DNA of 64,000 bases. It comes from Muricea muricata (lineage: Eukaryota > Cnidaria > Anthozoa > Malacalcyonacea > Plexauridae). The first letter of the stretch is position 1. Each line of letters begins with the position of its first letter. Made by a program: the position numbers and the translations under genes. Positions 47,950 to 48,179 of the stretch are shown here, one piece after another. The notes beneath the pieces were generated by a model that had not been told where the DNA came from, searched no databases, and saw only the letters and a list, made by a program, of their open reading frames with translations. The stretch covers positions 1,795,179-1,859,178 of the forward strand of contig OY979717.1 in the NCBI GenBank assembly GCA_963855995.1, given 5' to 3'.

Positions 47950-48179
47950 AGAATAAAACATAATCCGAAGATTAGTTTCTTGAAACCCAGGATACGGATT
48001 AAAACAAGACGATATTGAGTTGTGATATTTCGATTTTATTGCAAAATCATCATCAGACAGACAGACTGATGATGTTTTTGCAATAAAATCGAAATATCAC
48101 AACTCAATATCGTCTAGATCTTGTTTTAATCCGTATCCTGAGTTTCAAGATGCTAATCTTCGGATTATGTTTTATTCTA
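47950..48179. repeat. Palindromic repeat with two hammerhead-like units
   Basis: Head-to-head palindrome with ends AGAATAAAACATAATCCGAAG. Each arm reads CTGATGA, a stem and GAAA. Minus arm 48028-48056: stem GATTTT/AAAATC with loop GCAAT, perfect. Plus arm 48066-48094: same with one stem mismatch. In both, GAA is followed by ATAT, nine bases, ATAT, then C, matching stem III and the cleavage-site C of a hammerhead. Stem I is unclear. Confidence 0.8.

What the first reader, a model, noticed from the sequence alone, without database searches (positions are those of the whole stretch)
47950..48179. Head-to-head palindrome with two hammerhead-like units including stem III and cleavage C
Both arms hold CTGATGA, a 6-bp GATTTT/AAAATC-type stem, GAAA, then ATAT-loop-ATAT and C, the order required for core, stem II, stem III and the cleavage-site base. 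The sequence of stem II differs from the 31.7-kb family while the architecture is the same, as expected for compensatory evolution of a ribozyme rather than copying alone.
Basis: partly seen in the sequence, partly recalled or inferred. Interest (0 to 1): 0.75.

Follow-up and report, generated by a model that had tools for sequence, protein, structure and literature searches.

The report
Penelope retroelement palindrome with hammerhead ribozymes
The palindrome is a small dead insertion of a Penelope-like jumping gene whose two mirror-image halves each carry that element's short hammerhead-type self-cutting RNA motif, a known kind of association, although the halves also hint at where the element's RNA starts and how its copies were joined.

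Summary
The 231-bp palindrome (47949-48179) is the core of an old insertion of about 276 bp (c. 47904-48179) with an imperfect 10-bp target-site duplication. It belongs to a multicopy family. In longer copies the arm is the 5' leader plus ORF start of a Penelope-like element (PLE) with reverse transcriptase and a GIY-YIG motif just under Pfam's cut-off. The 31.7-kb family is a second PLE lineage. Each arm holds a hammerhead of the minimal PLE type: CUGAUGA, one extra base, 6-bp stem II, GAA, self-complementary AUAU, C17, then stem I (ACA/UGU). Stem I exists and covaries: between families 7 of 11 pairs change on both sides. One unit lies on each strand; the right one is decayed, and the palindrome RNA folds as one long hairpin. 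The head-to-head form is an integration signature: in 28 of 30 pairs exactly one arm has the ~30-nt PLE tail, and arms of short palindromes tend to stop 30-31 nt below a TATA box, presumably at the mRNA start. New member of a known kind.

The parts
47904..48179 (.). Whole insertion: Penelope-like element remnant made of two 5'-truncated leader/pLTR copies, head to head
   Evidence: tail end and arm end mapped against family references; left boundary uncertain by a few bases because of a run of A
47894..47903 (.). Left target-site duplication TCTAGTACGT
   Evidence: 9 of 10 match the right copy; 9 or more matches in 22 of 30 pairs against 2.6% of 312 swapped controls
48176..48185 (.). Right target-site duplication TCTAGAACGT (overlaps the arm end by 4 nt)
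47904..47948 (-). Tail extension present on the left arm only (sense strand: ...CTTAAAATTGTTGGCTGGTATATTGGTGG + T run)
   Evidence: left arm reaches family reference position 142, right arm stops at 108
47949..48062 (-). Left arm: PLE leader from about the inferred mRNA start to about 10 codons into the ORF
   Evidence: frame seen in L027
48066..48179 (+). Right arm: same region, opposite strand, more decayed
48021..48059 (-). Hammerhead unit of the left arm: stem I 48059-48057/48023-48021 (UGU/ACA); CUGAUGA 48056-48050; extra U 48049; stem II 48048-48043/48037-48032; GAA 48031-48029; AUAU 48028-48025; C17 48024; predicted cut 48024|48023
   Evidence: cut site inferred from hammerhead knowledge
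48063..48101 (+). Hammerhead-like unit of the right arm, degenerate: stem I 1 of 3 pairs, stem II 5 of 6 pairs, core and AUAU-C intact
31683..31738 (-).
   Evidence: folds into stems I and II plus one isolated pair, z -4.06
2959..2998 (+). Another copy of the second family hammerhead (core CUGAGGA)

Best explanation
[quoted passage not shown] Each arm is a cDNA of the 5' end of the PLE mRNA, from about +1 to about 30 (tail-less arm) or 64 nt (tailed arm) inside the ORF. A minimal, Penelope-type hammerhead sits at the very 5' end of that mRNA, and its first 7 nt form the 5' strand of stem I. Proposed mechanism (inferred): the PLE protein cuts both target strands and starts reverse transcription on them at two fixed internal sites about 30 nt apart, one site per strand. 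Both cDNAs run to the 5' end of the RNA, and their ends are joined by microhomology or filler. The product is a head-to-head palindrome with a tail on one arm and a target-site duplication. In the living element the hammerhead would cut after C17 as a dimer, through the self-complementary AUAU, within tandem transcripts. In this palindrome it is a fossil: the family's TATA stretch is missing, one unit per strand, the right one decayed. Shown: family, PLE coding regions, tail asymmetry, duplications, clustering of 5' ends, covariation. Inferred: transcription start, cleavage, joining mechanism. Rough shares of belief: PLE origin 0.95, ancestral ribozyme 0.8, this joining mechanism 0.55.
For: PLE identity: L046 has a 433-aa RT (Pfam RVT_1 40.1 bits, cut-off 29.6) then a 169-aa ORF with ...CPGCSATYIGKTERCLQSRLSEH, then the hammerhead arm. 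Second family: L071 has RT (32.0 bits, cut-off 29.6) and GIY-YIG (21.7 bits, cut-off 22.6) in one frame between divergent arms. ORF start lies in the arm: L027 gives 93 open codons from ATGCTAATC, so by hand count the two arm ends lie about 10-12 and 21 codons in, as reported for an Adineta Penelope (12 and 22 aa; PMC3846280, passages). Tail: 74 arm ends fall at 100-119 (42), 135-152 (29) and elsewhere (3); 28 of 30 pairs have one of each; duplications of 9 or more matches in 22 of 30 pairs against 2.6% of 312 swapped controls. 5' ends: 15 of 74 lie at -8 to -2 from C3, 27 run to the end of the 300-nt reference, 32 are scattered. TATA[AT]A at -38 in 7 of 15 C copies, -37 in 14 of 21 T copies, -45 in 5 of 6 G copies, that is 30-31 nt above arm starts near -7 (C, T) and at -14 (G, by eye). 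Hammerhead.
Against: Rfam hammerhead models give no match. GIY-YIG Pfam scores stay just under the cut-off (22.5, 21.7 against 22.6) and the L046 GIY-YIG ORF has no hit at 0.001. Neither window arm folds better than shuffles (z 0.45 and -0.56) and neither lowest-energy fold has both stems. An extra base lies between A9 and stem II in 42 of 42 rows. Two of 30 pairs (L005, L018, look-alike loci) have no tail on either arm, and 8 of 30 pairs show no duplication of 9 or more matches by the script (L070 of these shows one by eye). In vitro the Anolis PLE showed no difference in start site between top and bottom strands, and no reads ended at its hammerhead cut (PMC11167929). 6 of 15 C copies have no TATA[AT]A, and 20 of 21 T copies have another one at -23. 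Arms of one insertion are only slightly more alike than arms of different insertions (7.1 against 8.6%, 3.0 against 3.5%, 0.7 against 1.2%), which does not decide between one template and two. No RNA data: start site and cleavage are untested.
Confidence: 0.82

Rival explanations
1. Same PLE origin, but the palindrome arose by self-priming: one cDNA snapped back at its 3' end and copied itself into a hairpin that was then integrated.
For: Arkhipova and colleagues interpret Penelope palindromes as self-priming, on an antisense template (PMC3846280, passage). Arms within a pair are slightly more alike than between pairs, and 7 of 29 pairs share at least one rare variant. The Anolis enzyme showed no strand difference in start site in vitro (PMC11167929), so a one-site-per-strand rule is not shown biochemically.
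Against: Pairs often have unequal 5' extents (for example L045 -19 and -216, L050 beyond -300 and -50). The second arm ends at a discrete tail-less site in 28 of 30 pairs rather than anywhere, and in vitro the Anolis PLE cuts and extends both strands (PMC11167929, section 3).
Confidence: 0.3
2. A foldback or MITE-like DNA transposon whose long terminal inverted repeats happen to contain hammerhead-like letters.
For: Long inverted ends, TA at the arm tips, 0.2-3.5 kb elements with inverted ends.
Against: Ends are asymmetric (tail on one side), duplications are about 9-14 bp rather than fixed, 5' truncation points vary, and the interior codes for RT with a GIY-YIG motif.
Confidence: 0.03
3. The hammerhead likeness is accidental: a sequence shaped by promoter and coding needs of the PLE leader.
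For: No Rfam match; in vitro the Anolis PLE inserts with a dead hammerhead (PMC11167929); the bare motif is near chance.
Against: Two PLE lineages with otherwise different leaders keep core, stems I and II, self-complementary tetramer and H17, with 7 of 11 pairs changed on both sides; 0 of 200 shuffles hold all features; 2185 and 206 genomic places against 0 for the reversed controls, although copying alone explains the numbers.
Confidence: 0.1
4. A microRNA-like hairpin gene.
For: Weak matches to miRNA models over the whole palindrome (MIR8675 43.6 bits, gathering 90.8); very stable hairpin (-157.2 kcal/mol, z -27.6).
Against: The matches are below the gathering score and no miRNA model is listed for one arm alone; a near-perfect palindrome of this length would attract them.
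Confidence: 0.03

Closest known systems
Penelope-like elements of the Penelope/Poseidon type (Adineta vaga Penelopes, Drosophila virilis Penelope, Anolis PAc)
   Same: RT and GIY-YIG; inverted pLTRs; about 31-bp tail on one pLTR; duplications of 8-10 bp reported there and about 9-14 bp here; pLTR covers the first 12 codons, 22 with the tail; head-to-head palindromes; TATA and initiator in the pLTR (PMC3846280, passages; PMC11167929, section 3)
   Different: Different sequence families in a genome not named to me; arm starts lie 30-31 nt below a TATA box in three (sub)families here, whereas the Adineta paper gives a TATA 20 bp from its initiator
Minimal type I hammerheads of Penelope-like elements (Cervera and de la Pena 2014; Lunse, Weinberg and Breaker 2017; both papers not held, known here through citing papers)
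   Same: Type I order, position in the PLE leader/pLTR, no proper helix III, self-complementary tetramer as expected for dimers
   Different: Tetramers AUAU and AGCU; one extra base (U or A) between A9 and stem II in 42 of 42 rows; whether the published variants have that base was not checked
Metazoan retrozymes (non-LTR, type I hammerhead in 150-450-bp tandem repeats)
   Same: Type I hammerhead in animal repeats
   Different: Inverted copies with PLE coding sequence here, not tandem repeats (PMC7229834, passages)

Membership tests
Penelope-like element | Reverse transcriptase in the same element | tested here: met
   RVT_1 above cut-off in L046 and L071, the two copies tested; not in the window copy itself, which is truncated
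Penelope-like element | C-terminal GIY-YIG endonuclease | tested here: inconclusive
   clear motif by eye, conserved in 3 of 3 aligned pieces; Pfam 22.5 and 21.7 bits against cut-off 22.6; no hit at 0.001 for L046
Penelope-like element | Inverted or direct pLTRs with an optional ~31-bp tail, short target-site duplication | tested here: met
   28 of 30 pairs with one tailed and one tail-less arm; duplication in 22 of 30 pairs (a few loci are related, so not all independent); window copy 9 of 10
Hammerhead ribozyme (PLE minimal type I) | Core CUGANGA ... GAA and H17 | tested here: met
   both arms of the window; H17 is C or U in 42 of 42 rows, rows pre-filtered for core and GAAA; one of the 3 rows left out has G17
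Hammerhead ribozyme (PLE minimal type I) | Stems I and II | tested here: met
   365 of 378 cells standard, slid versions at most 213 of 378; both-side changes in stem I pairs 1-3 and stem II pairs 4-6; window right arm fails (1 of 3 and 5 of 6); neither window arm shows both stems in its lowest-energy fold
Hammerhead ribozyme (PLE minimal type I) | Diminished helix III, dimer through a self-complementary tetramer | tested here: met
   AUAU in 35 of 38 rows of the two subfamilies, AGCU in 4 of 4 of the second family; the need for palindromic letters is stated in PMC6466107 (passage); dimer formation itself not testable
Hammerhead ribozyme (Rfam models) | Match to Rfam hammerhead models | tested here: not met
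   none at gathering score in the window, none at E up to 10 for the left arm or the 31.7-kb unit
   second ATATC absent in 17 of 17 rows of the sister subfamily and 4 of 4 of the other family
Hammerhead ribozyme | Self-cleavage | not testable with these tools
   needs a bench assay
Foldback/MITE DNA transposon | Symmetrical terminal inverted repeats and fixed-length duplication | tested here: not met
   asymmetric ends, variable duplications; RT inside

The most novel reading that the evidence does not exclude
These palindromes record both-strand target-primed integration of PLE: two cDNAs, each started at one of two fixed internal sites, both run off the 5' end of an mRNA whose hammerhead begins at or next to nucleotide +1, and are joined end to end. 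In that case solo palindromes mark reverse transcription of monomeric mRNAs (too short to carry the ORF), only tandem read-through transcripts can copy the whole element, and the 5'-terminal hammerhead, by cutting tandem RNA after C17, would directly control the choice between dead palindromes and full copies.
Probability: 0.35. Interest if true: 0.62.

Novelty: new member of a known kind. Interest (0 to 1): 0.4.

Why it matters
The role of hammerheads in Penelope-like elements is called a mystery (PMC7761336, passage) and later steps of their integration unvalidated (PMC11167929). Two PLE lineages in one genome, with over 2000 hammerhead copies, compensatory differences, a TATA-linked 5' end and a one-tail-per-insertion rule (28 of 30 pairs), offer a natural data set with concrete predictions about transcript starts, priming sites and the effect of ribozyme cleavage on which copies are made.

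Tried and rejected
Rfam scans of the window, of the palindrome and of single units: no hammerhead match; over the palindrome only sub-threshold models, miRNA ones foremost. A type III reading (helix III from the upstream TATAT, cleavage upstream of CTGATGA) was considered by eye and dropped, because its stem I does not pair well and the type I stem I covaries. DNA transposon: first idea from the inverted ends, dropped once RT and tails were found. A first motif scan had the tetramer shifted by one base; it is replaced. MAFFT misaligned the second family, so pairs were counted by anchoring on CTGANGA and GAA in a script; one search gave 45 unique rows, 42 were used: left out were L029:539 (G17 and no stem I), L045:3256 and L053:718 (close to L052). 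Arm-to-arm divergence did not separate self-priming from two cDNAs. A search for a third PLE hammerhead family with the ACGU tetramer did not complete. Cervera 2014, Lunse 2017 and Arkhipova 2017 are not held. The species of the window was not determined.

Full report
What was checked. The left arm, read on the minus strand, has a perfect core and a perfect 6-bp stem II. The right arm, on the plus strand, has an intact core but one lost stem II pair and, because the centre of the palindrome lies right at the core, a broken stem I. The bare motif is close to chance in this window. The whole set of features (core, stem II, GAA, self-complementary tetramer, H17, stem I) occurs three times and in none of 200 shuffles; I fixed that set after seeing the sequences.

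The surroundings. The window is part of a 453-Mb assembly in 74 contigs, G000. The palindrome gives 90 matches there with the DNA search, a lower bound (40 of 512 candidates scored). The 33-nt core has 206 places within 3 mismatches and none in the reversed control. Two subfamilies are seen, here called C (GCAAT loop, AUAUC; the window's own) and T (GTAAT loop, AUAUU). In longer copies the arm stands at both ends of 0.2-6 kb elements, facing outward; the exception among those fetched as pairs is L054, whose arms converge. L046 carries between the arms a 433-aa reverse transcriptase (RVT_1 40.1 bits, cut-off 29.6) and a 169-aa ORF with a GIY-YIG motif. In L016 the C subfamily shows RT-end and GIY-YIG pieces (Pfam GIY-YIG 22.5 bits, just under the cut-off of 22.6; the RT-end piece has no Pfam hit). 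In L027 the leader runs into an ORF of at least 93 codons that begins inside the arm. These are Penelope-like elements; that the L016 RT-end piece looks like the Penelope thumb is recalled, not tested.

The 31.7-kb family. Its core has 2185 places within 3 mismatches, reversed control 0. Of the 100 places listed there, 16 neighbouring pairs lie within 8 kb of each other, and all 16 are minus-then-plus, that is divergent (counted by eye). L071 holds RT (32.0 bits, cut-off 29.6) and GIY-YIG (21.7 bits, cut-off 22.6) in one frame between two such arms. It is thus a second PLE lineage, called G here, with its own promoter and leader.

The hammerhead. Counted on 42 of 45 unique units (21 C, 17 T, 4 G; all pre-filtered for core, GAAA and part of stem II, so percentages are inflated), 446 of 462 cells in 11 pairs are standard pairs. 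For stems I and II it is 365 of 378, against at most 213 of 378 for slid partners. Between the families 7 of 11 pairs differ on both sides: stem I pairs 1, 2 and 3, stem II pairs 4, 5 and 6, and the inner pair of the tetramer (UA in C and T, GC in G). One single copy adds a double change at stem II pair 1 (AATTTT/AAAATT in L020). H17 is C or U in all 42. One extra base (U in C and T, A in G) stands between A9 and stem II in all 42. The self-complementary tetramer directly followed by H17 is the conserved reading (AUAU in 35 of 38 C and T rows, AGCU in 4 of 4 G rows), and it matches what is written of Penelope hammerheads: they lack a proper helix III and act as dimers through palindromic letters (PMC6466107, PMC6155905, PMC7761336; passages). 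Folded alone, the 31.7-kb unit forms stems I and II plus one isolated pair (z -4.06), and a G unit from L067 does likewise (z -1.26). The T unit of L046 shows both stems in its centroid (z -0.07). The window's left arm forms stem II but not stem I (z 0.45), and the right arm folds otherwise (z -0.56). The entire palindrome RNA folds as one hairpin of -157.2 kcal/mol, so in this copy the ribozyme fold would be suppressed. Rfam hammerhead models do not match; I take this to reflect the missing helix III and the extra base, but that is inference.

Why a palindrome. The outer ends of 74 arms fall into two groups on the family reference: position 100-119 (42 arms) and 135-152 (29), with 3 elsewhere. 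In 28 of 30 arm pairs one end is of each kind; the two exceptions, L005 and L018, look like related loci, and so do L016 and L036, so the pairs are not all independent. Flanks of a pair share 9 or more bases with at most one mismatch in 22 of 30 pairs, against 2.6% of 312 swapped flank pairs. For the window copy the left arm carries the tail, the right does not, and the duplication is TCTAGTACGT/TCTAGAACGT. Counted by hand on the reference, the two ends lie about 10-12 and 21 codons inside the ORF. Adineta Penelopes show inverted pLTRs, a 31-bp tail on one of them, 12 and 22 codons, 8-10-bp duplications and head-to-head palindromes (PMC3846280, passages). In the Anolis element the tail corresponds to the stretch between two reverse-transcription start sites, and the protein cuts and extends both target strands; no difference in start site between the strands was seen in vitro (PMC11167929, section 3 read), so the one-site-per-strand reading drawn here from genomic copies is not yet supported by that experiment.

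Where the arms start. Of 74 arm 5' ends, 27 run to the end of my 300-nt reference, 15 lie between -8 and -2 from C3, and 32 are scattered, 6 of them inside the core. TATA[AT]A stands at -38 in 7 of 15 C copies, at -37 in 14 of 21 T copies and at -45 in 5 of 6 G copies with native upstream sequence; 6 of 15 C copies have none, and 20 of 21 T copies have a further one at -23. Short C and T palindromes start near -7, G palindromes (L067 right arm, L068 both arms, read by eye) at -14: 30-31 nt below the upstream TATA, although the distance to the hammerhead differs. The simplest reading is that these arms are run-off copies of the mRNA 5' end, and that the hammerhead begins at, or a few nucleotides after, the first nucleotide of the mRNA. 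This is an inference from DNA only, and the set of copies was chosen by similarity to the window's palindrome, which favours short palindromes.

What is not settled. Whether the two arms are two separately primed cDNAs or one cDNA that primed itself: unequal 5' extents and the discrete tail-less end speak for two, slightly higher similarity within pairs (7.1 against 8.6%, 3.0 against 3.5%, 0.7 against 1.2%) and rare variants shared in 7 of 29 pairs are compatible with both. Whether the hammerhead cleaves; in Anolis it did so only with protein added, was not needed for insertion in vitro, and left no reads ending at its cut site (PMC11167929).

Verdict. Observation confirmed; interpretation partly supported. 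A new member of a known kind (hammerhead-bearing Penelope-like elements), here a dead copy, with a clear and testable integration signature. In the listings and passages that I saw, nothing ties arm starts of such palindromes to the promoter or states the one-tail rule over many copies, but only open-licence papers were searched, none of the queries asked for exactly that, and the key hammerhead papers are not held.

Noticed in passing
window 2850-3070: Second-family PLE palindrome with hammerhead (core CUGAGGA) and possible duplication near AGAACTA/GGAACTA by eye; same architecture as at 31.7 kb.
   Followed up: partly
window 31640-31800: Second-family PLE palindrome; likely target-site duplication AATATTGACACAT/AATATTGGCACAT by eye, tail on the left arm only.
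   Followed up: partly
L047 (G000:C1:51117000-51124700) 2991-6787: An LTR retrotransposon of Gypsy-like look (gag-, RT- and integrase-like ORFs by eye, minus strand) nested in a T-subfamily PLE insertion; it separates the two arms to 6.4 kb.
   Followed up: no
L068 241-310: About 60 nt of TA-rich filler at the centre of a second-family palindrome, as if the joining step added or slipped on AT repeats.
   Followed up: no
L033, L034 (end of arm): Two C-subfamily arms end in ATTTT tandem repeats, perhaps grown from the TTTTATTTTAT arm end.
   Followed up: no
L052, L053, L054 (G000:C2 at 23.43, 23.53 and 23.95 Mb): PLE arms with near-identical flank letters at three places on one contig: probably segmental duplication, one of them with converging arms.
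   Followed up: no
all 42 hammerhead units: One extra base between A9 and stem II in two PLE lineages (U or A); whether published Penelope hammerheads have it could not be checked because the papers are not held.
   Followed up: partly
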